A DNA stretch of 64,000 bases from Clytia hemisphaerica (taxonomy: Eukaryota > Cnidaria > Hydrozoa > Leptothecata > Clytiidae). Location: assembly GCA_902728285.1 (NCBI GenBank), contig CACVBU010001196.1, positions 62,001 to 126,000 of the forward strand, read 5' to 3'. Below, one piece after another: positions 13,201-37,600 of the stretch (positions within the stretch are counted from its first letter, which is position 1; each line of letters starts with the position of its first letter). The position numbers and the translations under genes were made by a program. Under the pieces are notes generated by a model. That model saw only the letters and a program-made list of their open reading frames with translations. It made no database searches and was not told the DNA's origin.

Positions 13201-16200
13201 GGTGGAAGCCAAATTACTTCTTGGTAAAAGGTCAGTCAGCTTTCTTTTTCATTATTTCTCAGTTTTTATTATACCTCGATTTGGCTGTTCTTATAAATGA
13301 AGGTATCTTCTAAGCATACTAGAAGATCCTGTCGACCTCGAAAAGCTTAAAAGTAAATTATCTATTGGCTTAAAAATGTGTGAAAAATTTAAAGATTGTG
13401 CTCCTATTTTGATATAATAACGAGGATCTGAACGTACGAAAGTTGATTTGAAATCAAATTCTTTTTACATCTTCTATATTTCAGGTATTTTTGCACTAAG
13501 GACGGTTCGGTCAAACTCGAACGTGAATATTCGAAGAATACGAGCTTCTATGCTGCTAAAACTGTCGTTAAGGTACTATTATAATAACCATCACCTTTTA
13601 AAAATGAGTTTTCATCAATTTCATAATGTTGAACTAACGATGGAAAAACTATTCCAACTTTTTATCCATCTTTCAAAATTTATGCAACCTTTCCTTGGTT
13701 CCGACTTTTCGCAAAGCTTTTGGATTTTATTTCGTTCATTCGTGCAAATATTCGTTAGTAACAAAACACTCAAAACAAACTTTTAACTTTAATCTTTTAC
13801 TTTTTCTTCACCCTTAGAACCTGACGGTGCACAAGAGTTCCTCTAGAGAATACAAAACAGTTCAATCGCTCTATCCTGTCGGTTCCACGTGTTTCATGAT
13901 GGCTTCTGAATTCTACGGCTGTGCTGGTGAGGTGAGAGAGGAGAAAAGTTTTCGAATTTTTTTTGTTTTGTCAAGCTAAGATATCAACCTAGACTGCACG
14001 CACGCATCCCCTCCGATATGTTTTGATATAGGGGATGCGGATCTTATATAAAACTTCCGTCCGAGAGTTACCCCCATCTTTGTGTTTTTGAGTTTAGAAA
14101 ATTGATTAACTTGATTAGTTTTATACACATGAGAGATCTTTAAATAACATTAAATTCGAATTGAAAATTTGAATTGCTAGAGGTTAATTCAATCGTTGAA
14201 TCCCTGAACCTTTTCAAGAAAATTCAATTAGGCTACCCCAAATTTGGGGTATCTCTCGGACGGGAATTTTATACACGATTAGAGGGGATACGTACAGCCT
14301 AATATCAACCTTGCTAAACAACCAGAATGGGTCATATTTTATCATTTCTCGTTTCGGTTCGATGAAACTTTTTTTCTTTTATGAGAACAATTTTATGAGA
14401 ACAACGAGGCTCAAAATCACCAAAAAATAAGAACAATGCTGAGCCTGGAATCACTCAATTTCAAACAATTTAAGGGTCAAAGTGGTAAAAATTTGGTATG
14501 ACGCCTGAAATAACCTCAATTACACCCCATAAATTAGAACAGGATAATAAGAACTATTTGAGGCTCAAAGTGCCAAAAGAATAAGAACAGCGGAGCCTCA
14601 GCAAAATTTTACTGGTTCTTTCATCGCCGTATCTTGAATACAAATCAATTTTTGGCTGGTCTGTAAGTTGTAAGTTAACAGCACTAGAGTGAGAGTGTGA
14701 GCTATTTCTTAAAAAACAAACTGTGCAACAGCTTTTATACTTCTTCTAAAGGTTTTCGACTTTGAAGAGGAGACACAAAAAGTACGAGTGGCATTGAAGC
14801 CCCCGGTTGAACCAAATTACGATGACGTCATCCAAGATTACGACCGCCTGTCCGTATGTTATCTACATGAACACATCGTCGTCCAAAAACTCCACATTTC
14901 CGCTTATGTTCTTAACCGTATTACGGGCGACCTGTTCATACATGAACACGAACATGAAAGCCGGTCGAGTGGTACCAATATTGGGCTGAAAATTAAATAC
15001 AGTGGCCGAAATAAAGAGGTAGGCTCGAAAGAAATTACTAACTATATCTTTTATTTTTTTAACTGTAATCTTGCCATTCTTCTTATCGCAATGAAGTGAA
15101 TAATTTTATCTTTTGACCTTTCATCAGAAGCCTTGTTGATCCGGCGAGATTTGCCAGAATTCAGAGTCATGCAATTTGCAGGTGTCGTCTCCACCATCGA
15201 GGCAAGAAAAGTAATATTGCGCATGTACGAAAGAAAGGTGTGAAGAAAATACATGAAAAATGCTTACAATTGGATTTATTGTTACGAGAGCAATTGAAAT
15301 TGGGAAAAACTTTAGAAGAAATTTTTAAGGTTTTGGTTAAGTAACTAGGATAATTTTCCCATTATGGAAGAAGAACTTCGAATCGCATAGAAAGTCACCT
15401 CTTCAAATTCGAACATCTTCTTCTATAAAGACAGATTTCAACTAGGCTCCATGCCCCTGTGAAAGGTCTCTTTAAGGTATATTTTCTTTCCAACAACAAC
15501 TTCATAACAACATCCATTTGACGTCTCCAACGTTCGTATAACGTTAGAACAACGTTGTTTATAAGGTTCTGTACCAATTGGGTTCTTCAAAAAGATCCTT
15601 TTCTTTTTCTTTACCAGGCTGTTGGTTTTGCACGTCGCGTTAATGACACGTGGACCTTTTCTCCCGTCACCGTAGACATCGTACGTGAATACATCGACCG
15701 CTTCCCCGAAGTCTTCGAAACGTTAGGTCGTCGTGGTCACAAAGACAATTTCCTGGTGTCTGACTTCAGTAAGAGGTTAGTATATCTATCAACGTTTAAG
15801 GGCGAAGAGCGAATAATGTCAAACATATTGAAGTTCTTGGATTTGCGCGCTCACGAGTTATCTAATATTTTGATGGCAGATTGGTGACTGCCCACGTTTA
15901 AACTTTAAAGGAGGGGGCAAATTTTCCATCGGAGAGGAGTGGTTTTCTGCTTTTGATATGCCACATCCCCATTCTAGTTCAACGGTCCTTGCACGTAAAC
16001 CTGATAATATTTTGGTTGGATCCGCCAATCCCCGGACGCGAGGGATCTAGCTCCATCTCTTCAAACACGGCTTGGTGAAATTCCATAATTCAAACCTTTC
16101 TCAGATGTTGAAATCTTTCCGTTTCGGAAGAAAATTTCACAGGGGGATATTTGCGTCTCAACTCGACCCCGTTTCTTTTTGTAGTCGACGAGTATTTTCT

Positions 16201-19200
16201 ATTATTTTTAATGAACATTTTCAATGAGAATTTTCAATGAACTTCTTAAAGTTAAGTCTTTAGTCATTTTGTTAAGCCTTTAATATCCTCCTCCGTATTT
16301 TTTAGGAAGAACTTTTTGGGTGACGTGAAAGGCTTTTTGAAGTCGTTACCGTGTAACAAAACAGAGACTGTCCGGTGTGGAAGCAACGTCTTGGATAAAC
16401 CCGTCATTCAAAGGCTGAACGAAAAAGTCACAGCCCTCAAAGAAGTATGTGTTTTGCCTTTACTTTTTCATGATATTCAATATTATAAAGCTTTTCAAAA
16501 TTCGGATTAAGTACTAGTTACCACATGACTTCGAGTTCAATACGAGAAATATTTTGTGAGTTCCGGGATTTTTCCGAGCCTTTAGGCCTCTGCAAATACG
16601 AAGCTTAATGTCGAATGGTCAAGCTGGTGATTACCTCGCCACTAAGCAAATTTTATTTTTTTCCTTACCGCGTAGGAAAAAAGCCGTGAAAGTCTAATAG
16701 AGGTTTAGAAAAGCCCGTCTTTCGAACGTAATCGATTACTCATTGATTGAATCATTCCCTTTTTCATTCCAGGGCAAGAAATCAGAGAAAGTGACAAAAG
16801 TGAAAGTGAAACCAAACTGTATTTTCCGGCCGACCGATCAATTCGGGAAACTATCACCAGACCCCAAAGCGGAATTCTTTCTTTTGGATCGTGTTATCAA
16901 CGTGGATAAAGGTCTCACCGTTCCTCTTGGCTTGCGTGGTTCTGTTGTAGGGATATATCATGGTAAGCAACTCTCACGTATAGGCCATTTTATCGCCTAC
17001 CTAGGCTATAATCTACCTCGGAGGTCTTATAGATTAACCCATGTTCGTTCGTTCGTTCGCTCGTTCGTTCGTTCGTTTGTTCGTTCGTCTGTTATCAGGT
17101 TTTCTCGCGATTGACTTGGTATTTTTTCTGATTTTTTTGTTAGTGATGTAAAATAGTAATGTTTTAAATCTGATGAAGCCCGCTTTGTGAAAATATAATT
17201 ATTTGGCAAATTTGGGCCAAAAAGTGCCTAGAAAATAGTATTTTTAGACTGTGCTTGCTTCATTAGTTTTTTCTGATATTTTACAAAAACACAGACAGAG
17301 TGGTTCTCTAAAAAGTGGTCGAAACCGTTTTTTTTTTCTGAAAATCGTCTTTTGGCCGTAAAAATCAGATTTTTTAATTTGCATCTTCATATTGTTGTTA
17401 TCTTATTTTCTATTTTCCATTAATTTTCAGGTAGGTCGATTCAGCATAAGCTTGTCTCGTTAGAAATGAAAATAGTACAATTATTAAACCCAGAGCTGTC
17501 AGAGAAATTAAGTCGAGTTTATTGAGACGTCAATTGTCTACATCTGTGAGTTGATTCTTATAGAGATTTGAGAATCATAAGACCAAATCCCTTCCATGCA
17601 GTTTTTGAGCGCCATGGTTGTAGTTAGGATTGACGGCATTAAATAATTATGATTTGTTAGGATTCGTGACATAATATGAGACTTGGATATCATGAGTGGT
17701 GGATAGTGAATAAATGTCTTCTTCTGGAAAAGCACCTAAACTAAAAGTTATTGTAAAAAATGTTAACAAATTAAAATCGTAAAAAAGTTATAAAAGTATT
17801 TCATATAAAAGATACGCTGAATTTAAATAAAGGATATATAATGATAAAATGAATCAATTTTGGTCCACATCAATGCGCACTTAACGGCTGCCGATCAAGA
17901 TTTTCTTCTCTAATATCTGTATCTGTATTTACGTTGAATTCGGACTTTACGGCAGATGCGAACACGTCGACAACGTCGGACAGGTTTGCAACGTAATTGA
18001 TAACGTGGCTTCTTGTATTGGCCTTTACCGGCGTGCTTTGCGGGGATACGGACACGCGAACATTTCTTTGATGAGCGACATTTGCGAACGTAACGGCATT
18101 TTCTGCGGTAGTGTGTAGGGTCTTCCATTTCTGAAAATGAATCCAAATTTTTTGCATTGATAATAATAATTTCTTGTAAAAAGCATCAAAAAAGTTACTA
18201 GGTACCACAAACAACTGACCACTAACCACTCAATTAACATCGAGAAAAATTAGAATAGATGACCCAAAAAGTGATAAGTAGATCTTAGGATGTTTGTTCT
18301 TACGAGACAAAAAGATTGGGATCCCAGTATGGAGAAAGTGGATCTGGAAAAGCCTTCCCTTACCAAATTCTTCTGACTGACTTTGAAACAGAGAATGTAG
18401 TGATAACATGTCCCTTACATAACACCTCGTACCTTTTAACTCTTACACTGAAAACTACAAAACAGGACTGGATTCGAGTTTACCTAGAGGCGGAATGGTG
18501 ATAAAGAATGCACACAAAAATACAAACATTCAACTCTAGGAAGCTTATCACATCCCCGATGTACACGTTTTTTATAAGAGCAAACTATATAAGAACATAA
18601 GGCTTCAATGGCCAAAATGTTAAGAACAAGTTAAAGAACACTTTCAGGCTTTGTGGATTCTAGAGAACACCGAATCTCATAGGAAAATGGTCAAAAATAC
18701 TCGAAAAATGGCGAAAATAAGAACATGTTAAGAACAATTTAAGACTTAAAACTCAAAAAGTTAAGAACATCCCAAGGCTTCAAAATTTTTGGATGTTCTT
18801 ATAAAAAAACGTGTAGGTTCATTTCAATTTACCTTCAGCATCTTCATCCTCATTCTCTTCGTCATCCAAATCACTCAAATCTTCATCTTGAACGTTATCC
18901 AAAGCATCTTCCACAACTGTGTCTTCTGTAGAAAATTATCCTCTTTTCTCCTCGACTTCTTCTGTTGTCGTTGGTGAACCTATTATAATCAAGGATTCGT
19001 CACTAAGAGAAAAATAACCCGACCCTTCTTGATTTATGATTTACAATACCCTTTTATGATTTTCTTCTGTCACGGACCCATTAGATGTGATTTTCCTTCT
19101 CGTGATTATTTGCCTGAGTTTTAGCTCCTCAACCAGAGAAATCCTCCTTTTCTACCAGATGAGAAATCTTCTTTTTAACCAAAATTCCCTTGAATCTTTT

Positions 19201-22200
19201 TTCGTCAACAATATCATGATAGATAAATTTTTACCATCAAAATTTCGTTACCTTCTGGATTTTAGAATACTGAATCATTACAACTTACATTTCACCATCA
19301 CAAGCATTGCAACAAACAAGAAAATCAATTTCGTCATCTTCATCTCTGCTGCTGGATAAAAAATTTCTTCCTTGAAATGTCGAAATGCTATCTTTGGATG
19401 TTTTGTTGAACTTTTGAACTTTGGTTGACTTTGAATGATTTTCTTCCATTTCCGAGAACCTTTTATAGCAGTAAGAATGATTCATAACATCTGCACAGCT
19501 TCATGCAATATGTATGAAAACAGATGTAAATATGACCTCCCAACCAACATATCCCAATCTGTCATTTTTCATAATTCACGCTAATTGGCATCATTAAAGA
19601 AATTACTGTCTGTGTCTCTGAATTTTAAATGGAGCTAAATGATAAAACTACACATTGCGGTATTCTGTTTATCATTATTTGTCATTTCTGGCATGTTTAT
19701 AATTAAAAACCACTTCCCGGTTATCTTCTATCTAAGTAACTAAACTTTCCTGAATTTACCCACAACAGAGACATTTGGTTAAGTTTCTAGTCCTCTTAAT
19801 TGGTCAGCCTCGGTGACCCTTCAAATCGGTTCCGCGATTTTTCTTCCGCTGGTGAAGCTCTGGATCAAAATTTTGAAACTTTTAAAACCGATTTCCGATT
19901 TCCGATTACCGATCTCACTTTGATTTCTAAACTTTCTTCCGATCGGGTTAACTTTTTGGGCACTTTTAGCGTGTGTTGTTTTTAACGATCATAATGTGGT
20001 GTTTCAAGATGGCGGTTCAAGCCGATAAAGTGTTGTTCCAAAGTATTTCCAGTGTGAATCTGTTTGTCTGTTGCAAGCTTCAATTTCTGTCATTTATTTT
20101 TCTAACTCGGCAAATCAAACACATTATTTTCATCAACAGGATTCTTTTTCTACATCTTTTGAAGGTTTAAAGCCGTTTGCTCAAGTTTTTGTTTATGTTG
20201 AATTTTCTGATACTTTTTATTGTAGCTAGTTTTTGCAATAAAAACATATTTTTTTTGTTTGCCTCTAGAGGGGGGATTGATGGTGTTATAATGCTATTGG
20301 AATTTGATAAAGTATACAAAAGTACAGCTACTGTCTAAATTTGATAAAGACTGGCGTGTTTTTTTGGACTTGGACGTGTTTGGCTTCAGACGACCCTGCC
20401 GATACACCGTACATTCCGGCGTTATCTTTTGTCTGGTATTTTCTTCATTAAATTTTCAAAAGTGCACACCGGACTACACCGGACTGTCTGGTACATTTTT
20501 CTCTCGGAGGAAACAAAGTACACCAGACACTACACCGGAACTTTTGTCCAGTGATTTATCCATATATTTGCGCACCTGACAAACTGCACCGGAATGTCCG
20601 GAAATTGTTTGGTTCCCGTCATTTCTACTTTAAAAAGTGGGTCGTCCGGTCGGTCGATCGAAAATATTTTTCTTTTTAAAGAAGCAGCTACATCTTGTTG
20701 AAAGGGAATCGGCGTGGACTTGTCCGAATTAAAAAATTGAGAAACCGTCAACCGTGGATAAACTGGTTTTCGGTTTACTCTCCCTTATAGCACGCGGCTC
20801 GCTACTTCGATTTGAAAACTTGTAAACACAGAGCGTGCAGAGGTTGACAGTGGGAATCCAGTAAAGCAGCGGAAAAGCTTTCAGACTTACTGTACCACGG
20901 CAGCAGGTAGAGTAACTACCTGCTGCCGTGGTACAGTGGTCATCAACCTTGATTCCTGTATGGGAGATCAAGGTCCTATTCTTACTCACGGCAGCTCGCT
21001 TGGCAAGTGAGCGAACCTTCGCCCGGGTCCACCCATGCCATGTGAGGGGAATTTGGTAGTCAGTCCAAGGTGCTGACGGGACACTAACTTGGTGTCTCTA
21101 GTTGAGAATAGGCTTCTCAGCCTCCTGCAACTCAACCACATAGACATAGACATAGACGTAAATCAGGGTCGGTCAGATGACGGGAACCAAATGATGACGA
21201 TCACATCTCCTATTATTGGACTTGCAAAATTATAACAAAACGGTCTTTGGAATTTGATCAATATTTGTCCTTTGTCCACTTCTTCTTTCAGTCTACGACA
21301 CAATTAGTTTTATGGCGTGAGATGCTAGGCAATTCGATCTGCCTAGCCAGGGTGCAGTATGCAGTGCTGACGAGTCCTAGTAAGGACGAAATGCATATGC
21401 TGCTCTGCCACCCAAATCTCCTGAAAGAAGATAGTTGGACAGAAATTCTTCTTCACATATATACAGTTTTTTCTGATCTTTGCGCACGTTTTTGGCTTCA
21501 ACTATGGTTGATATGGAATAGACCTTTTTTTAAAAAGGACGTCCTGTTGAATAATTATGTACTCTAGCCATAAAAACAATGATAGAGCCATGCATAATTA
21601 CTGTATCAGTAATTATATTTTGTATGTATTGTAATAATTATGCATGGTTTTATCATTGTTTTTCTGCTGGACTACATAATTATTCAACAGGGTGGCCTCT
21701 TTGAAAAAAGGTCTATGGCAGTCAGTTACAATTTTTAGAAGAAGCTGCAGAGAGTTACGACAAAGTGTTATTGGGGTTTTATCAAGTAAACAAAAAAAGT
21801 ACAGTTTCTATGTAATGAAAACTAAAAATGGTTCTACACTAAAATTATGGCATGTATCTTTATTTTGGGTTTGACTTTTTGGCAATTTTCTTATTTATTT
21901 GTAGTATAACACTTTGGTCAGATATGGATATTGTCTACACCCAACAGAAAAAATGTATTATAACTGACTAAAATGAACAAAAAGTTTAATTACACTAGAC
22001 TAACTAACATCCCAAACGAGCGAGGTTCCTGCACTTTTCAACCGGCAGCTAATTGCAATTGTATCGAACGCTGATCTAACATTTGCTCGCATCTCATCAA
22101 AATTATCCCTTTCACCCCTTTGACCCTCTAACCCCTTTGACCCTCTAACCCTTAACCCTCTTAGCTCTTTTGGCTGACCTTCCAGCCTCGGCTGGTTTAT

Positions 22201-25200
22201 TTTGCTTTCATTTTCTTCCGCTTGGTCCTTGTAGTGGATTGAAAAAGTGATCTTGTTGTGATCTAGTCTATTCCAAAGAACAGTATATTACAAGATATTT
22301 TTAAGAGGGAGGACGCGGATTAGGCTTGGGAAACCTTTTTATGACCAAAATAGTGACGCCATAGGCAAAACTGCAAGGGAAAATAAGGGGTAGAAATAGC
22401 TGATTTCCGAAAGTCAAAATAAACGAAAATGATTGGTATCATCTGAAAGAGCATGAAATTCTGAGCAAAAAAATGTATTACAACAACTCTCTGACTAAAA
22501 CACACAAAAAATACAGCCGCTTGAAGTTCAAAAACATACCGACGTCAGTACGATCAAGACAAGATTTGACGTCAAATCACAGTAGAGTGGTCTTAAAACG
22601 GCTGTATTCCTTTGTGTGTTTTAGTCAGAGAGTTGTTGTAATACAATTTTTTTCTCAGAATTTCATCCTCTATCAGATGGTACCAATCATTTTTGTTTAT
22701 TTTGACTTTTGAAAATAAGCTATTTCTCTACCCCTTATTTTCCCTTGCAGTTTTGCCTATGGCGTCACTATTTTGGTCATAAAAGGTTTTCCCGAGCCTA
22801 ATCCGCGTCCTCCATATCAAAGATATCTTGTAATATACTGTTCTTTGAAATAGACTAAAAATGGCTAGGTCGTAGAAAAGATGTCACGGAACCCCAGGCT
22901 TGGCTCCCTACTATATATAGGTCATTTCATCGCAATGAATCATGGGTAATCTGGACTACAGATGCAAAATCTTCTTAATTTTCGGATAAACTGGAATCAC
23001 TGGTCCTAGTTACTCATGATTCATTTCGACCACGATATAATTATATACCTATTGTGATGCATCATGTCTATTAATTAGTCTAAGTATCATATACAGCACC
23101 TGACCCCGAGAATGTAGGTGAAATTTGAATCATACCTGAAAGATGTAGATTTGCATTTTAATAGATTTTGAATCTTTTCAACGAAATTTTGAACTCCCAA
23201 AATCCTTTCCCAGGGGTTAGTTTCATTATTTTTGATAGATGGCCCAATTTATTTGGTCTTTGAAGTTGACTCCCATTTTCGTTATAGCCCCCAGAATGTA
23301 GGTTTGGTTTTATGGCTTTATATCTAGTAATAGTAAAATGTTGATATTTTTTCAATTGGATTAACTCTAACTGCAAATTTTAGAAATATTTTATGCCAAA
23401 ACAATATTCTAAAGAGCATTTTGTTATTCTGAAAATTTGATTTTTTCCCTTTTTAACCCCCAGAATGTAGGTAAAAAGATTCGGTTGTTGAGAATGGAAT
23501 CTCGGTATTCATCGGAAATTATTGTTCTCTAAGTGAAATTTATATTTTAGAAATATACTCTGACAAAAAATTAACAAAGATATTTATTTTATCGTGCTAC
23601 AAATGAGGGAAAGTAAAAGGAGGGACGAAATCAAGAGACAAGATAGGTTGAAAATTTTGTGTTGAAATGATGTGAATAATGTAACATTTTGTAGGTTGAA
23701 AATTTTGTGTTGAAATGATGTGAATAATGTAACAACACAACTTTTTCCCAATGCGGGTCCAAAAATTTCTACTTAAGTCCAAATTGGAATAGAAATTCTA
23801 TTGTTCCAAACTTAGGCAAATTTTCTGATTGGGCTGGGGTCCCAGTGGGCCTTGGACACGTCGTAAAAGCTCAAAATGTCAACAGTAATCATCTCTCAGG
23901 TAGTACTTTCATGTTATGAAAGTACAACAAACAAGTTTTATATAATTTGACAGACTTTTTATGTCGGGTTATAAAGGCCCCCAAATTGTAGGTCAACTAA
24001 CCCCAAAAGTTAGGTCAAACATTTTCGTCAAAATATCTAACTTAGAACAATAAATATTGAAATGGACTATTTTCCCCATTTCCTTAGTTCATTAGGACTA
24101 AGAAAATACCCTATCATCATAACTTAATTCCAATAGATTTCGATTTAGAGAGGATTTATTTAAAAAAATGTCTCAATTCGGGTAGTATCCAATCAACTTC
24201 CATTTAAATTTTCGTTAGAAAAAATTAATTCAAGTTAAAATCTTATGTCCAGAAATAATCAGTAAGATGTAACAGTATGCTCTGAAACAACTTTTTATGA
24301 AGTTGAACTATCGTTAGGACTACAATGCTAAAAAATGAGAAACCTACATTCTCGGGGTTTACTACATTCTCGGGGTCAGGTGCTGTACATCTCAAATGAA
24401 AATAGTACAACTATCAAACCCAAAGCTGCCAGAGAATGCAGAGTCGAATGTGATAGATAGACGTCAATTGTCTATATCTGTGAGTTAATTTTTTAGTAAT
24501 TTAATATTTTAAGACCCAGCCCCTTACATGTAGATTTTTTACGCAAGGGTTGATTCGTGTTGATATTGGTATTATTTTAGATAACGTATGTCATATTTTT
24601 TTCTTCATTGGTTTGGAAGTGCCTTGTTTATGTTAGCATTTGTGACATACATATTCAATTATAAGACTTGGATATCATGAATGTTATATAAATGTCTTGT
24701 TCCGGAAAAACACCTAGGTTAAAAGTTTATGTAAAAAATGTTGAAAAGATAAGTAGGTTATATAAGATATAATATGATAAAATTAATCAATTTTAGTCCG
24801 CATCACTTGACGGTCGTCTAATCGACCAGTAACTCTTGACCAGTTCATTTTCTAATATCTGTATCTGTATTTACGTTGAATTCTGACTTTACGGCAGACG
24901 CGAACACGTCGACAACGTCGGACAGGTTTGCAACGTAATTGATAACGTGGCTTCTTGTATTGGCCTTTACCGGCGTGCTTTGCGGGGATACGGACACGCG
25001 AACATTTCTTTGATGAGCGACATTTGCGAACGTAACGGCATTTTCTGCGGTAGTGTGTAGGGTCTTCCATTTCTGAAAATGAATCCAAATTTTTTGCATT
25101 GATAATAATAATTTCTTGTAAAAAGCATCAAAAAAGTTACTAGGCACCACCAACAACTGACCACTAACCACTCAATTAACATCGAGAAAAATTAGAATAG

Positions 25201-28200
25201 ATGACCCAAAAAGTGATAAGTAGATCTTAGGATGTTTGTTCTTACGAGACAAAAAGATTGGGATCCCAGTATGGAGAAAGTGGATCTGGAAAAGCCTTCA
25301 CTTCCAAATTCTCATGACTGACTTTGAAACAGAGAATGTAGTGGTAACGCGTCCCTTACATAACACCTCGTACCTTTTAACTCTTACACTGAAAACTACA
25401 AAACAGGACTGGATTCGAGTTTACCTAGAGGCGGAATGGTGATAAAGAATGCACACAAAAATACAAACATTTAACTCTAGTAAGCTTATCACATCCCCGA
25501 TGTACACGTTTTTTATAAGAACAAACTATATAAGAACATAAGGCTTCAATGGCCAAAATGTTAAGAACAAGTTAAAGAACACTTTCAGGCTTTGTGGATT
25601 CTAGAGAACACCGAATCTCATAGGAAAATGGTCAAAAATACTCGAAAAATGGCGAAAATAAGAACATGTTAAGAACAATTTAAGGCTTAAAACTCAAAAA
25701 GTTAAGAACATCCCAAGGCTTTAAAATTTTTGGATGTTCTTATAAAAAAACATGTAGGTTCATTTCAATTTACCTTCAGCATCTTCATCCTCATCCTCAT
25801 CCTCTTCGTCATCCAAATCACTCAAATCTTCATCTTGAACGTTCTCCAAAGCATCTTCCACAGCTGTGTCTTCTGTAGAAAATTCTCCTCTTTTCTCCTC
25901 GACTTCTTCTGTTGTCGTTGGTGAACCTATTATAATCAAGGATTCGTCACTAAGAGAAAAATAACCTCGACCCTTCTTGATTTATGATTTACAATACCCT
26001 TTTATGATTTTCTTCTGTCACGGACCCATTAGATGTGATTTTCCTTCTCGTGATTATTTGCCTGAGTTTCAGCTCCTCAACCAGAGAAATCCTCCTTTTC
26101 TACCAGATGAGAAATCTTCTTTTTAACCAGAATTCCCTTGAATCTTTTTTCCTCAACAATATCGTGATAGATAAATTTTTACCATCAAAATTTCGTTACC
26201 CTCTGGAGTTTAGAATACTGAATCATTACAACTTACATTTCACCATCACAAGCATTGCAACAAACAAGACAATTAATTTCGTCATCTTCATCTCTCCTGC
26301 TGGATAAAAAATTTCTTCCTTGAAATGTCGAAATGCTATCTTTGGATGTTTTGTTGAAGTTTTGAACTTTGGTTGACTTTGAATGATTTTCTTCCATTTC
26401 CGAGAACCTTTTATAGCAGTAAGAATGATTCATAACATCTGCACAGCTTCATGCAATATGTATGAAAACAGATGTAAATGTGACCTCCCAACCAACATAT
26501 CCCAATCTGTCATTTTTCATAATTCACGCTAATTGGCATCATTAAAGAAATTAATCAGTTTTTATGTATCTCTGAGTTTTAAATGGAGCTAAATGATAAA
26601 ACTACACATTGCGGTATTCTGTTTGTCATTTCTGGCATGTTTATAATTAAAACAACTTCCCGGTTATTTAAGTGACTAAACTTTAAAGAATCCCCGAATT
26701 TACCCACAACATAGAAATTTGGTATAGTTTCTAGTCCTCTAAATTTTACCTTCATTTTCTTCCGCTTGGTCCTTGTAGTGGATTGGGAAAAGCGATCTTG
26801 TTGTGATAAATCCAAAGGTCTTTTTTCTTACTTTTTAGTAGCATTTTCGTTGAGTTCTTTATATGTCTTTAGCTTCAGGATCTTTCTGCATTACATTTCT
26901 TTCTTCTCTTTGTTATAGTACCAATCGATGAGAATGATCAATTTTCACCGACAGAAATCCGATACGAAGTGATGTTTGATGAAGAATTTCTCGGTGCAAA
27001 CGACGTCAGGTAAGCAGTGACGGCTAAGTCGTCAACCCATTGTCGAACCTCGGTAATTCCGATGTTACGTCAGTTTTTAAATAGCCCAGCCTGTGAAAAC
27101 TTTAGAAATACTTTTTAAATGTCTTCTATCACAGGGCTATTCAAGTAGAATATCGACTCTGTAGAATATCGACTTTTCACCTATAAGATAATTGTAATAT
27201 GTTTTATAACTTACCATATAAAACAAATCGGTTGATCGTGAACCACTTAAATACAATCTATTGGGTGTTTTTGAAATCTTGAATAAAACAGAAGTCTTGT
27301 ACTAATACTAGTCTCACAACCCCTTGTGAAGTGGTGAACTTCAGTAAATGAACTGTTTTGAATCTTAGAATTTACGAGTGGTTTAATTCGAACTGGACCT
27401 AAAAAATTCCAACAGCTAACCTTTGAGCATTCTCAAAGGAGATACTATCCCATGAGTTCGAATTGTTTTTTCTTTACACCATATTATTGTTTCATGCTAT
27501 AGACATGTCAAAGAGCGCGGATACTTTATGTATGGTTACTCTTTGCTCAACCTTTCGTATGGCGAACGAAAACTTCGAAAGAAAGACAACACTCAACCGA
27601 TCGATCCTTTGACAGAGTTCAAGAAACGAATCACTGACCCTTCAAAAACTACTGGTACAGACGTACAGTATATCTGTTTAAAACAGTAATCCTGTTACTT
27701 TGGTCATTACCCTTTAGCTAAGCTAGGGAAATAGCCTGAGTTTTGAGAGAAATTTATTTGCTTATTTTTTACCAATGCTAAAACGCTTTCTGCCTTCTCT
27801 CCGTTCGGTGTAGAGAAGGTTGGTAGTTTCAAGAAGTCATTGTTATGGCGTCAAAAAGGTGGTATTGACTTGAGACAGTCTTTTTTCTGCTGACGTCAAG
27901 ACTGAAAAAGATATGTCAGAAAGTCGATCTTCTAGAGTAGTAATTTATATACACATGAAACGTAAAAGAGCTTGGTTTTTGTATTTTTAGGTAAATCTTC
28001 AACACCCAACAACAAGGGCCCTTACCGAGGGCGGTTGGGACCAAACAGAGACAACGCCCAACAGAGAACGCCCGAACCACCTCAATATTGGTTGAAAGAT
28101 AAATATCAATCACCGAGAGGGAAGCAATCGCCTCACGGTAGTGGTCATAAGTCACACGGAACGGGCGGTGCGCGGAAGAAAGAAAATACAGCGTAAGCAA

Positions 28201-31200: not shown

Positions 31201-33498
31201 CGACTCTTTTAGGTCTCGAATTTTTGTTATCGATAATCAGAATCTATCACATCATCATTGCCTGTAAAATTGCAATGCATTACTGTTTGTTTCCATCATA
31301 GAGCCAATCGGATTCTAATTTATCATCAACAAAAGAAAACAAAACACCGTTACGCCCGAACCCGTTCGTGCCACACCAGGTTTATTTAGATTATCTTCTT
31401 TTCGCATTTGGAAACGGTCTGCTGAATATAAACAGCAACCACTCGGCTGCCAGAGTATCTCAGGGTATTTCAGCTCCAATTCAGTCAACTGTCAACCCCC
31501 ATCTCCTCCGAATAAAGTTGAGGGTAGCAATTTTTATTCCCGTCTTGGTCGAGAGATGCCTTTCTTCGGTGTTTTATCAGGGCTTTTCTGCTTTTCGGGT
31601 TTAAACAGGTTGGGGTTTATGATTAGGTTTAAAAGAAAGGTTGCAACCAGTTAAGATTTTCCTACCGGGTGACCCACGAAAAAGTTCAGACATTTCCCGA
31701 CATCTTGAGGCCGAACAAATATCCCAAAGTGCTTGGAGTTTTGATATTTAGAAGGTAGATATCCTAACTTAAAATTTGAGCTATCACTTTTTAAATTTGA
31801 CCAACTTGTTCTCTACTTATGAGCTTTAAACTCAAAATTCACTTTTCGGAAAGTGTAAAAAAACACGTAAAAAAGAGGTATCAAATTCATGCAATCAATT
31901 AGAAAATCACTTACAAATTGACCTATTTAACGAGTTTTATGACATTAATAATTAATAAAAACACCTTTGAAAGCAATTTTTGTTTAAAACAAGACTAGTT
32001 TTTATAAAAGTTGGCGCTTTCATAGATTTTTTTCAAAAACTGTATATCAAGAACGTCTAAAAATACCAAATTTGATACCCCTTTTTTACGTGTTTTTTAC
32101 ACTTTCCGTAAAGTGAATTTTGACTTTAAAAGCTCATAAGCAGAGAGCAAGTTGGTCTAATTTAAAAAGTGATAGCTCAAATTTTAAGTTAGGATATCTA
32201 CTTTCTAAATATCAAAACTCCAAGCACTTTGGGACATTTGTTCGGCCTCAAGACGTCGGAAAACGTCTGAACTTTTTTGTGGGTCACCCGGTAGTTTCGT
32301 TGTTTTAATGGATGCAATGTTCTTATGATAACTTTTCACCTTTTAATTCACTATCCCTATCCGTTTTACTTAATACGTCTTTTGAGATACAAGAACACTG
32401 GTGTGAGGCTCTTTGCTGGTTCCTTTTGAACCTGAAACCTATACTTAGATTGTCTAGTATTAACAATTAATTAATCAGTTGATTTACTTTCTAACCCTTT
32501 TACCCTCGTGAGCAGGTCTCAGTCAAAAATACAAAGTGGGAAGAAAGCAAGCAACCCGAAGTTCATGGACCGCCACCACCTATCAACGTCAAGGCCGAAT
32601 GTGACCTCAAAGAGATGTTAGGTATCCAAGCTAGATCTAGCCCTGATCCCATGCAGCAAAGTGAAGGTGAACTGAAGAAGATGTTAGGAATAGTTGGTAA
32701 GCCTTCAACGTCACCTCAACCACCAGATTCTCCTGGTCAAGACATTCTGAAAAGCATTGGTGTCACCAGATCTTCACCAGCACTTACAGCAACCTCAATG
32801 GAGAACCAACTCACTGATGACATGAAACTCATGAACCTGATAGGAATCAAACCAAATTCCTCGACCTCACCGCCAACCAATAATGTCGGTAGGCCACTAC
32901 ATCAAACAGCTTCTGAACCAATCATGATTCAAGAGAGACCTACCCAGGTAATCCTTTTATAGCCGATTCCAGAATTTTCCTAAACTGCACGCATCCCTGA
33001 CATGGTTTTTGTTCCAAGGGATGCGAATCAGACTCAAAAAAGCTCTTCCGCTTAGCAGGCTCTAATGTTATATGCATATGATTTCAAAATTTATATTAAC
33101 CTTAAACCATTTGCTTGACACCAGTTTATAGAATACCTTTTTTTACGTCGGCCCCAATTTAATTCCCATCTCTTACGCCGGCCCTTATAATGCCAGCGAC
33201 AAAAAAAATAACCAACTCTAAATTTATTAATCCGTCTCCTTCCTTACAGCAGGTAAACATACCAAAACAATCAACTGCGGCGCATTCTAGCGCTTCTGCA
33301 TCACAATCATCTTCATCACCACTGCTTCAAACAAGAACACAAGCGGCCAAACCGTCACCTAGCAACAGTTCAAGATCCTCCCCAGCTCTCTCAACAGCCT
33401 CAAGCAACAGAAGCCAAAATTCATCTCCAGCACCTGGAAATGCAACCAAGAAACCAATCCTCTTAGCTCCAACTTTCTTCGGAGCTAAAAAGAAGTAA
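1244..33498 (+). CDS. XRN1: 5'-3' exoribonuclease 1, first coding exon missing
   Basis: Degrades decapped 5'-monophosphate mRNA in the cytoplasm. Exons: 1244-1375, 1672-1772, 2042-2139, 4248-4357, 4610-4720, 4967-5134, 5589-5757, 5908-5975, 6259-6381, 8357-8506, 8818-8921, 9211-9300, 10741-10897, 11242-11361, 12292-12678, 12953-13230, 13485-13572, 13818-13931, 14752-15018, 15618-15775, 16306-16444, 16773-16962, 26919-27009, 27503-27654, 27991-28192, 28564-28732, 28935-29166, 29381-29417, 30135-30219, 30463-30570, 30891-31034, 31302-31379, 32516-32947, 33250-33498. The sum is 5301 nt, all phases agree, and the product would be about 1790 aa with the missing start. The first traced residues [16 protein letters not shown] match about residue 25 of animal XRN1. 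Nuclease motifs seen: [46 protein letters not shown]. Later come [19 protein letters not shown], the SH3-like [12 protein letters not shown], Gln/Pro-rich exons, and a dsRBD-like exon (30463-30570). Identification is very secure; small C-terminal exons are less so. Confidence 0.95.
2116..2242 (+). repeat. Left direct repeat, copies XRN1 exon end
   Basis: These 127 bp contain the last 24 bases of an XRN1 exon, its GT donor at 2140 and adjoining intron. They recur at 4066-4184 with an 8-bp length difference and a few substitutions. This left copy holds the donor that keeps the reading frame. The duplication brackets the 1.8-kb insert and is far longer than a usual transposon target-site duplication. 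Confidence 0.85.
2168..3853 (-). CDS. Unrecognised 561-aa ORF in insertion
   Basis: Uninterrupted 561-codon frame. I do not recognise the family. The N-terminal 120 residues are acidic, with many Asp and Glu and a motif [13 protein letters not shown]. The middle (about 120-350) looks like a folded domain with hydrophobic and aromatic residues. Residues about 370-470 are Ser/Arg-rich and look out of frame compared with flanking protein. The C-terminal part is basic with a Lys/Arg cluster ([18 protein letters not shown]). The last 24 or so codons, ending [11 protein letters not shown], come from the antisense of the XRN1-intron direct repeat, so the natural C-terminus may be lost. Two other minus frames stay open here (2650-3159 and 2403-2624); the latter has a KRKR nuclear-signal-like stretch. 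Whether the ORF is expressed is unknown. Confidence 0.5.
   Translation of the reverse strand: MNYQWETVKISLDDYWIPTIWEDAYPNAQPHNEADMAELKQTQDIVDDECYQDPENLMDDDFPNMDAEMDKLVADEEVSYIPAIDDVLLESNVSMRNIDYLIDTVDDGSEECKNILDEGRNVTFDAAFYFAYLNIMYSFFWNFKMSNPKELFNMKGVYNTDNRRYQYEFEIVPCMELDDVIIFQQVKRVFNEVKAMSKSDLYDALKAGHTNPKMLALHFTAIQEKGLVYLDDVYNPEVSTPPTVIIHAIYPGLHLSKKKLDAINAERLLVAEHWSTESDTSAYACENALKNQLHTHDVLLISATRHKGTWREKTDRRTIRQYVWQHLQDMFSKAVDRGCVTYSTQQQAKGFCCNGKPDVSGELQENVPAVHPLSTYPSSSRLARPRLRIVSITSSEEEYMVRSNSSVSPSCPSTARMSSVREWASLTELSLISSSPLRRNVNEVMTNGFQRRQYQRDQREPYNRKKTVRRQILELLKEKCIRNSKHYDVELLTNEHLQFLEGCIMPSALNNVKRIAFNQNCYRPIVPYFERTEFGCFDLSDQNLKKRFFYWWKGKNSSPWT
2243..4065. mobile_element. 1.8-kb insertion of unknown type in XRN1 intron
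   Basis: The segment between the two 120-bp direct repeats. It is less AT-rich than the surrounding intron and is mostly filled by one minus-strand ORF. The 3853-4065 part upstream of the ORF start has no coding signal. It contains a 16-bp palindrome, CTATGAGATCTCATAG, near 3887 and GC-rich stretches near 3930-4030. I see no terminal inverted repeats, LTR or poly-A tail. Candidate origins are an unclassified transposon, an integrated viral fragment, or foreign DNA captured during break repair. Confidence 0.55.
4066..4184 (+). repeat. Right direct repeat, decoy exon end and donor
   Basis: Second copy of 2116-2242. It contains a duplicate of the XRN1 exon tail with its own GTATTT donor at 4090, but no acceptor or complete exon in front. 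Removing the insert and one repeat would leave a short intron of about 158 bp, which is the likely ancestral state. Confidence 0.8.
5172..5428 (-). repeat. tRNA-derived SINE
   Basis: Read on the minus strand, the right end has a tRNA-like head with an A box (GTACAGTGGTAGAGC) and a B box (GGGTTCAACCCCCAG), spaced as in tRNA genes. A non-tRNA body runs to about 5172. It lies in an XRN1 intron. The non-tRNA tail and the lack of a matching acceptor stem argue for a SINE rather than a tRNA gene. Confidence 0.7.
6731..8338 (+). repeat. Interspersed repeat: GTTC microsatellite plus about 470-bp tandem units
   Basis: Fills most of the 6382-8356 XRN1 intron. It opens with ACCTACCTAAGGTAG and a GTTCGTTCGTCC microsatellite (about 6765-6820), then three tandem units of about 470 bp starting near 6866, 7330 and 7803. 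Each unit has a GATGCAAAATGNCAAT block and repeated CCGGCCGAAAATGCCGGAAATATGCC-type tracts (shortened and variable here). It ends GTAGGTCCATTCAGCATG. Related copies lie at 11691-12180, 16996-17447 and, reversed, 46255-46441. Small open frames inside it are shadows of the repeat. Confidence 0.75.
11391..11614 (+). repeat. 29-bp minisatellite, 8 copies
   Basis: Eight head-to-tail copies of a 29-bp unit containing ACCACGCCAAAACATATTCT, with only C/T variation at one or two positions and the last copy truncated. It starts about 30 bp after an XRN1 splice donor (exon ending 11361). The near-identity implies recent expansion, and copy number is probably polymorphic. Confidence 0.9.
11691..12180 (+). 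repeat. Degraded copy of GTTC/CCGG interspersed repeat
   Basis: Begins with ACCTGGAGGTCCTATAAATTAACC, like the other family members, followed by TCGTTCATTTGTTGC and a GATGCAAAATAGTAAT block with CCGGAAA tracts. More diverged than the 6731-8338 array. Lies in the XRN1 intron before the exon at 12292. Confidence 0.6.
13991..14301. repeat. MITE-like element with GCATCCCCT ends
   Basis: The left end has ACTGCACGCACGCATCCCCT and the right end GGGGATACGTACAGCCT, an imperfect inverted pair. An inner hairpin ATCCCCT...AGGGGAT sits at about 14005-14040. A shorter relative is at about 32975-33045. Both lie in XRN1 introns. Confidence 0.45.
16512..16680. repeat. Partial relative of the 36532 hairpin MITE
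   Basis: CTAGTTACCACATGACTTCG, then a stretch with CGAGAAATATTTT, GGGATTTTTCCGAGCC and TTTAGGC, matches one arm of the element at 36532-36679. The second arm is diverged. Intronic in XRN1. Confidence 0.4.
16996..17447 (+). repeat. Copy of GTTC/CCGG interspersed repeat
   Basis: Starts CCTACCTAGGCTATAATCTACC, contains GTTCGTTCGTTCGCTCGTTC (17043-17095) and ends GTAGGTCGATTCAGC, like the family member at 6731-8338 but without the tandem inner units. It sits at the left edge of the big XRN1 intron, directly before the segmental duplication. Confidence 0.65.
17910..19343 (-). pseudogene. Left copy of cationic six-Cys peptide gene, nonsense-mutated
   Basis: Three exons, matching the intact copy at 24852-26291: 19343-19289 (signal peptide), 18979-18833 (acidic pro-region) and 18130-17910 (basic Cys peptide). 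Splice sites and phases are kept. In exon 2 one base change turns a Glu codon into TAA at 18936-18938, so translation would stop at about codon 33, before the basic peptide. Exon 2 is 6 nt shorter than in the intact copy, losing two acidic residues. The mature peptide exon differs from the intact copy by one residue (Ile for Val before the last Cys), so decay is recent or conversion is ongoing. A sequencing error at the TAA is possible. Minus-strand, nested in XRN1. Confidence 0.7.
18562..18815. mobile_element. MITE with TACACGTTTTTTATAAGA ends (left copy)
   Basis: About 254 bp with inverted ends TACACGTTTTTTATAAGA / TCTTATAAAAAAACGTGTA and inner repeats of AAGAACA and GGCTTCAA. It lies in intron 2 of the peptide gene. 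The same insertion is at 25503-25756 in the other copy. Family relatives lie near 14370-14600, 31080-31170, 34190-34260, 56830-57150 and 62498-62775. Confidence 0.7.
19459..19467 (-). promoter_or_regulatory. TATA box of left peptide gene copy
   Basis: TATAAAAGG on the minus strand, about 115 bases upstream of the signal-peptide ATG. It is identical in the right copy at 26407-26415. Position and sequence fit a core promoter with a 5' UTR of about 85 nt. Confidence 0.5.
20890..20936. repeat. Perfect 21-bp-stem hairpin
   Basis: CTGTACCACGGCAGCAGGTAG, the 5-base loop AGTAA, then its exact reverse complement. The right arm is the start of the tRNA-like SINE head, so this looks like two SINE heads joined head to head, or an inverted partial copy. 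Confidence 0.8.
20916..21160 (+). repeat. tRNA-derived SINE with ACATAG tail
   Basis: A tRNA-like head (GTGGTACAGTGGTCATCAACC as A-box region, GATCAAGGTCCTATTCTT as degenerate B-box region), a body with GCTTGGCAAGTGAGC, and a 3' tail of three ACATAG units ending near 21160. Head, body and short-repeat tail are the SINE layout. Confidence 0.6.
21543..21691. repeat. 149-bp foldback element
   Basis: CCTGTTGAATAATTATGTA at the left is mirrored by TACATAATTATTCAACAGG at the right. A second inner inverted pair is AACAATGATA..GCATAATTAC with GTAATTAT..GCATG..TATCATTGTT. It would fold almost end to end. Confidence 0.75.
22264..22857. mobile_element. 594-bp near-perfect palindrome
   Basis: Arms 22264-22519 and 22599-22857 are reverse complements with few mismatches, around a spacer of about 79 bp with GACGTCAG and GACGTCAAA. 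The outer ends read TAGTCTATTCCAAAGAACAG and CTGTTCTTTGAAATAGACTA. It codes for nothing evident. Fits a foldback transposon or long-TIR MITE. Confidence 0.85.
22930..23029. repeat. Small inverted-repeat element
   Basis: CGCAATGAATCATGGGTAATCTGGAC faces GTCCTAGTTACTCATGATTCATTTCG across about 40 bp. A related GAATTATGGGTAATCAGGAC arm is at about 41569 in a GGCX intron. Confidence 0.55.
23094..24385. mobile_element. 1.29-kb non-autonomous DNA transposon, TA target
   Basis: Perfect 24-bp terminal inverted repeats starting CAGCACCTGACCCCGAG, flanked on both sides by TA. A motif CCCC(A/G)GAATGTAGG recurs inside (near 23101, 23289, 23457) with weaker copies near 23975. These may be transposase-binding sites. 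No transposase ORF. It ends 8 bp before the right duplication copy starts. Confidence 0.75.
24852..26291 (-). CDS. Secreted acidic-pro / cationic six-Cys peptide precursor
   Basis: Predicted 142-aa prepropeptide in three exons: 26291-26237, 25926-25774, 25072-24852. Exon 1 encodes a signal peptide (MKMTKLI then a hydrophobic run LFVAMLVMV). Exon 2 starts CSPTTTEE and is very acidic, about 26 Asp/Glu in 50 residues. Exon 3 is very basic, about 30 Lys/Arg in 72 residues, with six Cys spaced C-X5-C-X5-C-X23-C-X5-C-X5-C, ending KYRYRY and TAG. Phases agree at both junctions (T|GT, G|AA), and donors GTAAGT and GTAAAT with AG acceptors are present. The layout (signal, acidic pro-part, Cys-rich cationic end) is that of many animal antimicrobial peptide precursors, so host defence is the best guess. 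A nematocyst or matrix-packaging role is possible. I do not recognise the family. It is nested antisense in an XRN1 intron. Confidence 0.75.
25503..25756. mobile_element. MITE with TACACGTTTTTTATAAGA ends (right copy)
   Basis: Same element as 18562-18815, in intron 2 of the intact peptide gene. Confidence 0.7.
26407..26415 (-). promoter_or_regulatory. TATA box of intact peptide gene
   Basis: TATAAAAGG on the minus strand, 116 bases upstream of the signal-peptide ATG at 26291. It suggests that the nested gene has its own promoter, separate from XRN1. Confidence 0.55.
27010..27502. other. XRN1 intron, nothing distinctive
   Basis: AT-rich intron between exons 26919-27009 and 27503-27654. No repeats or conserved signals were seen beyond the splice sites. 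Confidence 0.5.
31662..32294. mobile_element. 633-bp foldback MITE with about 225-bp arms
   Basis: Starts CTACCGGGTGACCCAC and ends GTGGGTCACCCGGTAG. The arms stay complementary for about 225 bp (for example CCAAAGTGCTTGGAGTTTTG and its mirror). The AT-rich centre has no coding content. Lies in the XRN1 intron between exons ending 31379 and starting 32516. Confidence 0.85.
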
Positions 33499-34602: not shown

Positions 34603-37600
34603 ATGAGAAATTACATAGACAGAATTTTACTGAAAATCAACGAAGGGCGTGACCCTGCTGCATTGGGTGTTCTTCGATTTTGCTATGGTAAGTGATTATT
34701 GTTTTCCATTCTTGTTTAAACCGATGTGATACTTTTTTCTAGGAAATATTCAAAACGAATTCGTCAAAGATGGTTGATATTTCTGAACTTTGATCAAATG
34801 ATTAAGAATTATTGTTTTAAAAATGGAATAGATTTTTCAAAGCGATTCTTTTAAAACTATATCGAATTTTTATTTTCCGTTTTCGAAGAGATGCTTAAAA
34901 TTTCCATTTTTCCCAAATGACCAGTTTTGGTGATCACTTTCACCTACCGAACGTTCTTTTTTTGTTCCAGGACTTTTAATGATTATCGACATTTTTGACG
35001 AACGTGGTTTGTCTCGATTACCCATCAAGCATGGCGACCCTTCATCCTGCTACTTCCCGCTATTCGATAATATGCCTCGATTATCAATCGAATATTTATA
35101 CTTAGTATATCTGGTTTTGCTGATGTCAGCATTTGGGATAATGATTGGGATGTTCTTCAAGTTGTCTTGTTTTTGTTTCATGTCTTGTTATTGGTACATC
35201 TTTTTCCTGGATAAAACTGTTTGGAATAATCATTCATATTTGTATGGATTGATATCCATCATTTTGTTGCTAAGCAACGCTAATTATTATTGGTAAGGCT
35301 CACATAATGAGAATTGAGTTTACCATCCCAGCCATGCGGACAGCGTTTTGCTTTCAAAACTCGCTGGCAAAGACAACCGACAAATCTTTTAGACAACGAT
35401 TATTTGTTATTCTTGATGACTATTCTTTACCAAAAGGTTTTAGGTATTATTGCCGACCCAAAAAAATATCAGCGTTTTGATTGGTCGAGAGCATCGAGAT
35501 ATTTGCGATATTTCATATTTCTTTAGTCTGGAAATATGACCGCGTTGACTTTTGGGGGACTGGGTAAGCGGCGGGAGAAAAATCAAAACAAAACAGCCGA
35601 AAAGAACTGACTTTCGGAGAAACTGACTTGGAAATCAAAAGGGGGAAACGCAACAAAAATATGTTCAGATTAATTTTTACTTTGGAGTTCTTCAATAAAA
35701 GACACTAAAATCAAATCTGATGAACTAAGAATTTATTATAAAACAACTTTTGGCAAACTTGTCCGTGTGATAGCCAAACAGTTTTTTATCAATGCATACA
35801 AAAAAACTTGAGATTCTTGAATGTTTGCCAATAAAATTTCTCATAACATAACAAGGAAAGTGTAATGTCTTGTATTTAACCAAATGACGAGTGATTTTTA
35901 TAAAAGTTCTCTCCTAATTCTCGTTCTCGACAACAACGTAGTCTACGTCCTTGACTTTTCAACTCAACAATCATTATACGTCTTCCTTCTAAAATTCGAA
36001 ACATTTAGAGCTTGACGATAATCAAGAAAGTATCCAAATTGTTTTGCTGTTGAAAAAATGTTGTTCTTTAACCATTTTTACAAGCATACATTTCCATCAT
36101 GGGACTCCTTTCCTCTGCTATTCTTTCCCATGCATGGCCATGTCACCGAAACAAAAACATAGAAAAAGACTGAATGTTATCAATCTGATTAATCTATTGA
36201 TGGAGGGTTTCTTCTCTATCGAAACCATACTGTACATCATCTGCATTTTGAATTATCAATCTAGAAACTTTCAAATACATCTCTAAAAAATCTGCAACTC
36301 TTCAAAACAAAACTTCTAGATCGAAAATGATCGAAAAATGTTTCTCTATTTTGTTTTTGTGTGAATATTTTTAGCGGGAAGTTATCGAATGTTATTTTGT
36401 TCGAATCTAACGTTCGAATTAGATTTTCGAATAAAAACATTCGAAAGTACACAGAAGCAGAAGAAAGCGGAAGTAAGTTTAAAAACAAAAAGAGGACAAT
36501 TTTTTTGAGTCGACAATAAATTAGTTATCACATGACTTCTCGTGCAATACTCGATATTTTACTCGTTCCGAGATTTTACCGATATTTTTCCTCGCCTAAA
36601 GGCTCGGAAAAATATTACGGAAAAATCTCGGAACTCGTAAAATATTTCTCGTATTGCACTCGAAGTCATGCGATAACTAGTACCTATTTACGACAAAAAG
36701 TCTGATAGAAACTAACGAAATACGACGATGGCTCACTTTTATGTTTACCTTAAGAGAAGAATTTTTGGCAAGAAGAATTTTTAGCTAATGAGCCCATTCG
36801 CCAATTTTGGTGCAATTTGGCGAAATTTATTTTGGCGATTTAATAAAGTTTCTAAATTTGGCGATAATTATTTTTGGCGAACGACCCATTTTTGTTCAAT
36901 AATTTAGCTGAAAAAAAAGAGGAAAAGAAGGGTTTTTAGGAGAAATGAAGACTAAATTGAAAGAAAATTTAATTTGGCGGGAATTCTTTTTTGGTGAATG
37001 ACCTATGAATTTAAATTTGGCGGAGAGAAATATTGGCGAAATTTTTAGGTAGTTCGCCAAATTCGCCAAAATTTCTTCTCTTAAGGTATTTACTATGTTG
37101 CAAGCAAGCAATAAATTATTCACAAGTTATTTGACAGTCTTATTGTTGAATAATTCACTGGCCAGAAGTGACCAAACTTTCGGTATTTCGGGATCCTGAC
37201 TTTGGCCTTCCACTTTGGATAATACAGTTATCTTCTTTATTTTAAGGTCAATAGATGGTTTGATTTGGCCATCGATAAGAAATAAACAGATTCCCCTCTG
37301 GCAATATGGGGTTGTCAGATTTCAAGTAAGTAGCCCCCCCCCCCTTCATTTTACATCTACTAACAGTATTATGTTAAGACTTGAGCACGTGGTTCCAATT
37401 GAAATTGTAGAAGTCTTCCCGTCCTTTCCACAATAGAGTTTTACTGGTTTCTTTTCAAGTTATCTACCTCTCATAAATTTATGTCCCAAATTTGCGATTT
37501 TCAAATTCCTTCATTTATATTTCATATACTGAAATCCATCCACGATCAGATTGCACCATTTTTGGTTTCCGCCTGGAAATCACCCTCAAAAGAATCGATC

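What the first reader, a model, noticed from the sequence alone, without database searches (positions are those of the whole stretch)
24852..26291. Nested gene for an apparently unknown secreted, charge-balanced, six-cysteine cationic peptide
Seen: three short minus-strand exons join in phase to give a signal peptide, a pro-region with about 26 acidic residues, and a 72-residue basic end with about 30 Lys/Arg and six Cys in C-X5-C-X5-C-X23-C-X5-C-X5-C. A TATA box lies 116 bp upstream. Known: antimicrobial peptide precursors of animals, including coral ones, often pair an acidic pro-part with a cationic Cys-rich mature part. Inferred: a host-defence peptide of a family I do not recognise, hidden in an XRN1 intron and easily missed because each exon is small.
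Basis: partly seen in the sequence, partly recalled or inferred. Interest (0 to 1): 0.9.

Follow-up and report, generated by a model that had tools for sequence, protein, structure and literature searches.

The report
Charge-masked six-cysteine jellyfish peptide gene
A jellyfish gene hidden inside another gene's intron encodes a small secreted protein whose acidic half balances a very basic, six-cysteine half, a design seen in antimicrobial peptides of Hydra, but its function is untested.

Summary
The gene is real. Three minus-strand exons (26291-26237, 25926-25774, 25072-24852) splice in phase to a 142-residue precursor: signal-peptide-like start, 50-residue pro-part with 26 D/E, basic end with 30 K/R and six Cys. 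A Clytia hemisphaerica UniRef entry matches at 99%, so it is already in databases, uncharacterised. It lies antisense in a 9,956-bp XRN1 intron. A and C share exon pattern, splice phases and a 31-bp TATA-to-TCATTC spacing, and show purifying selection (dN/dS 0.25; Cys core 0.14). A and B look gene-converted. Three exon-3 relatives from unnamed contigs keep the six Cys; the basic end looks like a doubled C-X5-C-X5-C unit. No Pfam family passed its cut-off and no PDB sequence matched convincingly. Best explanation (0.5): a charge-masked cationic antimicrobial peptide that works like Hydra periculin but belongs to an unnamed family. Antimicrobial function is inferred; matrix or glue protein and embryonic signal remain live rivals.

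The parts
26237..26291 (-). copy A exon 1: start codon and signal-peptide-like start ([18 protein letters not shown] + first base of Cys)
   Evidence: maximum 11-mer Kyte-Doolittle 3.39; no signal-peptide predictor was run; same exon length (55 nt) in locus C
25774..25926 (-). copy A exon 2: whole acidic pro-part (phase 1 at both ends, 153 nt)
   Evidence: 114 nt in locus C
24852..25072 (-). copy A exon 3: basic six-Cys end C-X5-C-X5-C-X23-C-X5-C-X5-C and stop
   Evidence: relatives P0002-P0005
26407..26415 (-). TATA box of copy A (TATAAAAGG)
   Evidence: TATAAAAG starts 31 bp above the A of a TCATTC in A, B and C
26381..26386 (-). TCATTC initiator-like element; predicted +1 at 26384
   Evidence: a further TCATTC lies above the TATA box in A and B; the UniRef model P0001 begins at 26375, i.e. 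+10; the initiator motif is recalled
25073..25773 (-). intron 2 of copy A, phase 1
25927..26236 (-). intron 1 of copy A, phase 1
17910..19343 (-). copy B, tandem duplicate: exons 19343-19289, 18979-18833, 18130-17910; in-frame TAA at 18938-18936 in exon 2, so probably a pseudogene
16963..26918 (+). XRN1 intron (9,956 bp) that splits the Xrn1 SH3-like domain and holds A and B on the opposite strand
   Evidence: exact splice bases read by eye

Best explanation
A Clytia gene makes a secreted pre-pro-peptide. The acidic pro-part (net -24) masks the cationic end (net +27) during synthesis and storage. After secretion or protease release, the 72-73-residue, Arg-rich end, held by three disulphides, binds anionic microbial surfaces and protects an epithelial or embryo surface as Hydra periculin does. 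Gene structure, family membership and selection on the protein are shown. Transcription (from the database model), signal-peptide cleavage, disulphides, processing and antimicrobial action are inferred.
For: Architecture. Same three-part plan and splice phases in locus C/P0002. Six Cys kept in 5 of 5 compared sequences (A, C, P0003, P0004, P0005) with outer spacings 5,5 / 5,5 and a middle loop of 20-24. Purifying selection between A and C: dN/dS 0.25 in the basic end, 0.14 in the Cys core. Hydra AMPs are described as precursors with a signal peptide, most with bipartite charge and a complex Cys pattern, encoded by paralogous, taxon-restricted genes (PMC10945409 section 3), in tandem clusters (passages). 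Periculin-1 is described as anionic N-term, cationic C-term, 8 Cys (PMC12466427 table row). Anionic propieces neutralising cationic peptides are cited for mammalian alpha-defensins (PMC7073735 passage). A and B are tandem duplicates.
Against: I saw no activity, expression or mass-spectrometry data. The basic residues before the first Cys (RRK) are RQK in P0004 and RKK in P0005, so a dibasic processing site is not strictly kept. Only three exon-3 places in the genome, against 28 periculin paralogues in one Hydra strain. No kB-like motif within 500 bp (A) or 430 bp (C) above the predicted start. The Cys core is conserved, whereas many AMPs change fast (recalled). At 41% K/R with few hydrophobic residues the end looks more like a polyanion binder than a classic amphipathic pore former.
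Confidence: 0.5

Rival explanations
1. Structural or adhesive secreted protein: a Lys/Arg/Tyr/Cys-rich polycation that condenses with acidic partners (its own pro-part, mucins, glycosaminoglycans) and cross-links by disulphides, as glue, egg coat, perisarc or matrix component.
For: 7 Tyr, 11 Lys, 19 Arg, 6 Cys in 72 residues; near charge balance, net +3, would suit a coacervate; the authors of PMC12225738 weigh AMP against adhesion for Clytia's short Cys-containing secreted PF1 proteins (passages).
Against: Structural proteins are often longer and more repetitive (recalled); six Cys positions kept in 5 of 5 sequences suggest a folded domain, although cross-linking proteins can keep Cys too.
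Confidence: 0.25
2. Embryonic signalling ligand or modulator that binds heparan sulphate through its basic end.
For: Locus C product is named 'Cnidarian restricted protein' in UniRef, the vocabulary of the Clytia Wnt3-morpholino screen PMC4169000, which counts 13 cnidarian-restricted sequences with signal peptides, 77-526 residues long (passages). That P0002 comes from that screen is my inference.
Against: No receptor known and no strictly conserved cleavage site; the screen's accession list is in a supplement I could not read.
Confidence: 0.13
3. Nematocyst component: a polycation that pairs with the poly-gamma-glutamate of the capsule.
For: Cnidarian, Cys-rich, basic, with a pro-part (general knowledge, recalled).
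Against: No nematocyst or collagen family among the 10 Pfam hits listed; no minicollagen-type Pro/Gly stretch in the sequence.
Confidence: 0.07
4. Chance exon chain or a dead gene.
For: The neighbour copy B carries an in-frame stop.
Against: UniRef model with the same junctions, intact locus C, 26 of 47 differences at third positions, reached by 19 of 20,000 random assignments.
Confidence: 0.03

Closest known systems
Periculin (Hydra)
   Same: signal peptide, anionic N-terminal and cationic Cys-rich C-terminal part, gene family (PMC10945409 passages; PMC12466427 table row)
   Different: 8 Cys against 6 here; described as confined to the genus Hydra; no Hydra protein among the hits
Arminin (Hydra)
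   Same: one of the Hydra AMP families, most of which are said to have a bipartite charge (PMC10945409)
   Different: its C-terminal active peptide is listed as alpha-helical (PMC12466427 row); lack of a six-Cys scaffold is recalled
Aurelin, damicornin, AmAMP1
   Same: cnidarian AMPs with six Cys (PMC12466427 table rows)
   Different: ShK relation of damicornin/AmAMP1 taken from the title of a cited paper, of aurelin recalled; no ShK match here
PF1 short secreted proteins of the Clytia planula
   Same: short, secreted, conserved Cys, no similarity found outside Clytia by their authors (PMC12225738 passages)
   Different: sequences are in a supplement I could not read, so identity with this family is neither shown nor excluded; 'many' PF1 members against three places here
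SCRiPs of corals
   Same: small secreted Cys-rich taxon-restricted proteins
   Different: mostly anionic, other Cys spacing (PMC2652719 passages)

Membership tests
Hydra-type bipartite AMPs (as a kind) | signal peptide + acidic part + cationic part | tested here: met
   (hydropathy and charge counts only; no signal-peptide predictor)
Hydra-type bipartite AMPs (as a kind) | antibacterial activity of the released part | not testable with these tools
   no assay
Periculin | eight Cys | tested here: not met
   six Cys in the basic part of 5 of 5 sequences
Periculin | sequence homology | tested here: inconclusive
   no Hydra protein among the hits (E up to 1, 10, 10); coverage of Hydra in that database not checked; no direct alignment made
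ShK-type (aurelin/damicornin) | ShK domain | tested here: not met
   no ShK family among the 10 Pfam hits listed at E up to 10; HMMER's filters drop most matches above about 0.1
Defensin-like | match to a defensin model | tested here: not met
   only PF25052 at E 1.7, 9.4 bits against a cut-off of 25
Any solved structure | sequence match in the PDB | tested here: not met
   best E 0.2, query 7-100, acidic part included; 0.4 with the five-sequence profile; sequence only, no fold search
Family of P0002 and P0003-P0005 | C-X5-C-X5-C-X20-24-C-X5-C-X5-C and exon-3 similarity | tested here: met
   P0002 found by copy A alone at E 2.5e-38 and P0003 at 1.1e-30; P0004 and P0005 only by the A+P0002 profile, 1.0e-13 and 4.0e-13; the basic-end profile found P0005 again but not P0004, which is longer than that search admits; spacing in 5 of 5
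PF1 (Clytia) | sequence match to PF1 | not testable with these tools
   sequences only in supplement

The most novel reading that the evidence does not exclude
A hydrozoan host-defence family built on a new disulphide scaffold made by doubling a C-X5-C-X5-C unit, with a built-in splicing safety catch. The acid mask is exactly one symmetric exon, and skipping it creates TAA at the exon 1/3 junction in both A and C, so the secreted polycation cannot be made unmasked.
Probability: 0.2. Interest if true: 0.68.

Novelty: new variant of a known kind. Interest (0 to 1): 0.5.

Why it matters
Hydra AMP families are reported to have no homologues outside their genus (PMC10945409). A conserved charge-masked family in another hydrozoan, with relatives on unnamed contigs, would let one ask whether the same precursor design is reinvented in each lineage, in an animal where morpholinos (PMC4169000, passages) and CRISPR knock-out (PMC6078951, title and abstract start) have been used. 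The exon-skip stop and the A/B likeness make specific, testable points about how such genes stay safe and alike.

Tried and rejected
Chance ORF chain: rejected (UniRef model, intact locus C, codon-position bias). Membership in ShK, defensin or any Pfam family or solved structure: no match above cut-off or below E 0.2. Prokaryotic or viral relatives: 53 and 594 pattern stretches in viral contigs and genome contigs gave 0 relatives by tblastn. More Clytia copies: three queries of different divergence found the same 3 exon-3 places; the tool scores only its best candidates. kB-like sites: none by two patterns. Words shared by the 300 bp above A and C: TATAAAAG at -31 in both, three further 8-mers (nearest pair -142 and -159), two in reverse orientation, none of 9 or 10. 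Nesting of locus C was not settled: I only listed ORFs of 70 aa or more in 9.9 kb around it, without a domain search. The NF-kB paper PMC12221839 had nothing on effectors in the passages searched. The first script mis-set copy B's exon 1 end, so its B translation is junk; one search has the right one.

Not in print: searches (21 of 21 papers listed; 11 of 11; 20 of 516; 20 of 126; 10 of 10; 12 of 391; 9 of 9) listed no paper that, by title and abstract start, describes this gene. I read passages of eight papers and one section of one of them, no whole paper; most subscription journals and all supplements were out of reach.
Full report
WHAT IS THERE. The minus-strand exons 26291-26237, 25926-25774 and 25072-24852 join with GT...AG introns in phase 1 to a 429-nt CDS and a 142-residue product. 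Residues 1-19 are a signal-peptide-like start, 20-69 carry 26 D/E and 2 K/R (net -24), and 70-142 carry 30 K/R, 3 D/E and six Cys spaced 5,5,23,5,5 (net +27).

IT IS AN ANNOTATED GENE. The protein search returned a 170-residue UniRef entry of Clytia hemisphaerica (A0A7M5XCS3) identical to the spliced product except one residue, V to I, the residue found in copy B. That entry starts without Met, at window 26375, which is +10 of the transcript predicted from the TATA box and TCATTC element (+1 at 26384). I read this as a 5'-truncated, transcript-derived model; its origin was not seen. So the gene was not missed, only unnamed.

COPIES. The held genome (417 Mb, 951 contigs) gave the same three exon-3 places with each of three queries: A, B and locus C on another contig (C526). 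C has three exons (55, 114, 224 nt) with the same phases and the same 31-bp TATA-to-TCATTC spacing, and its spliced product is P0002 letter for letter (exon by exon). P0002 is called 'uncharacterized protein' by NCBI and 'Cnidarian restricted protein' by UniRef. A and P0002 are 64% identical over aligned residues, the acidic parts least. Copy B (17910-19343) lies in tandem with A and has an in-frame TAA at 18938-18936 in exon 2; on this assembly it would give only a short product.

GENE CONVERSION. Over the 1,612 bases of A from 26463 to the stop codon A and B mismatch in 38 columns, introns as alike as exons (98.0-98.1% against 96.4-99.1%). Directly after the stop only 282 of 392 aligned positions agree, with 120 gap columns. 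In 0 of 1,000 shuffles was any 1,600-column stretch so poor in differences. The 3' flanks of A and B are still kin (171 of 235) compared with C (129 of 251 and 119 of 232). An old duplication with a recent conversion tract explains this. Against a neat tract: the upstream flank is also alike (423 of 440 aligned, 32 gap columns), so the 5' end is not sharp, and a fast-changing 3' flank is not excluded; the shuffle does not model uneven rates.

SELECTION. A and C differ at 13, 8 and 26 first, second and third codon positions in 72 codons of exon 3. dN/dS (Nei-Gojobori) is 0.25 for the basic end and 0.14 for the Cys core. This is protein-level constraint, from a single pair of sequences.

RELATIVES. 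Copy A alone found P0002 and P0003 (526-bp contig); a profile of A and P0002 added P0004 (4.4-kb contig) and P0005 (4.2 kb). Their N-termini do not align, and I take them as exon-3 frames read on into intron by a gene caller. The five distinct sequences keep the six Cys, with a middle loop of 20-24. P0003-P0005 show no signal peptide or acidic exon in what I saw, and their species are unknown. Viral and prokaryote collections gave none. No Pfam family passed its cut-off and the best PDB E-values were 0.2 and 0.4.

INTERNAL REPEAT. The halves [18 protein letters not shown] and [18 protein letters not shown] match at 9 of 18 positions. With Cys fixed, 245 of 20,000 shuffles scored as well for A, and 37 to 525 of 20,000 for the other four. 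A doubled C-X5-C-X5-C unit is likely but not proven; the sequences are related, so these are not independent tests.

NESTING. XRN1 runs on the plus strand: D1 in frames at 12292-13297, D2/D3 in frames at 14713-15884, and the SH3-like domain split between an exon ending at 16962 and one starting at 26919. The second half alone scores below Pfam's cut-off; a typed join scores 51.2 bits against 26.2. The 9,956-bp intron between holds A and B on the opposite strand.

SPLICING CATCH. Exon 2, the whole acid mask, has phase 1 at both ends. Joining exon 1 to exon 3 gives TAA at the junction in A and in C (B was not run). So from the normal start codon exon skipping cannot yield an unmasked polycation. 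This follows from Cys (T|GY) and Glu (G|AR) at the two junctions and may be accidental.

FUNCTION. The plan is that of most Hydra AMPs: signal peptide, bipartite charge, Cys pattern, paralogous taxon-restricted genes (PMC10945409, section 3 and passages). Periculin-1 is the nearest by description but has eight Cys (PMC12466427 table row). Acidic propieces masking cationic peptides are cited for alpha-defensins (PMC7073735 passage). I therefore hold a charge-masked cationic surface-defence peptide most likely (0.5). Against it: no activity data, no strictly kept processing site, no kB-like site upstream, only three copies, and a Tyr/Lys/Cys content that also suits a glue or matrix protein. For Clytia's PF1 secreted proteins the authors themselves leave AMP and adhesion open (PMC12225738 passages); whether this family is PF1 could not be checked. 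The label of P0002 hints at the embryonic Wnt3 screen (PMC4169000 passages); that link is my inference.

VERDICT. Novelty: an unnamed family with its own Cys scaffold on a known precursor design.

Noticed in passing
window 43761-44756 (-): Uninterrupted 7tm_1 receptor frame, 332 aa stop to stop, E 1.4e-31.
   Followed up: no
window 34934-35293 (+): HTTM-domain frame, E 1.5e-39, downstream of the XRN1 SH3 exons, probably another gene.
   Followed up: no
window 2171-3895 (-): Open frame of 575 codons without a Pfam match at E 0.1.
   Followed up: no
window 22264-22857, 21518-21716, 31662-32294, 36522-36679: Self-complementary blocks of about 160-630 bp, probably MITE-like; the first lies in the XRN1 intron beside a 65-column match (22199-22262) to the upstream end of copy A (26743-26807), as if an insertion split copy B's upstream flank.
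   Followed up: partly
window 6747-8174, 11717-12035, 17024-17186: Related repeated blocks at 69-86% identity.
   Followed up: no
window 25700-25520 and L003 2600-2420: By eye, a similar GTTCTTAAC-rich repeat lies in intron 2 of copy A and in intron 1 of locus C, perhaps independent insertions of one element.
   Followed up: no
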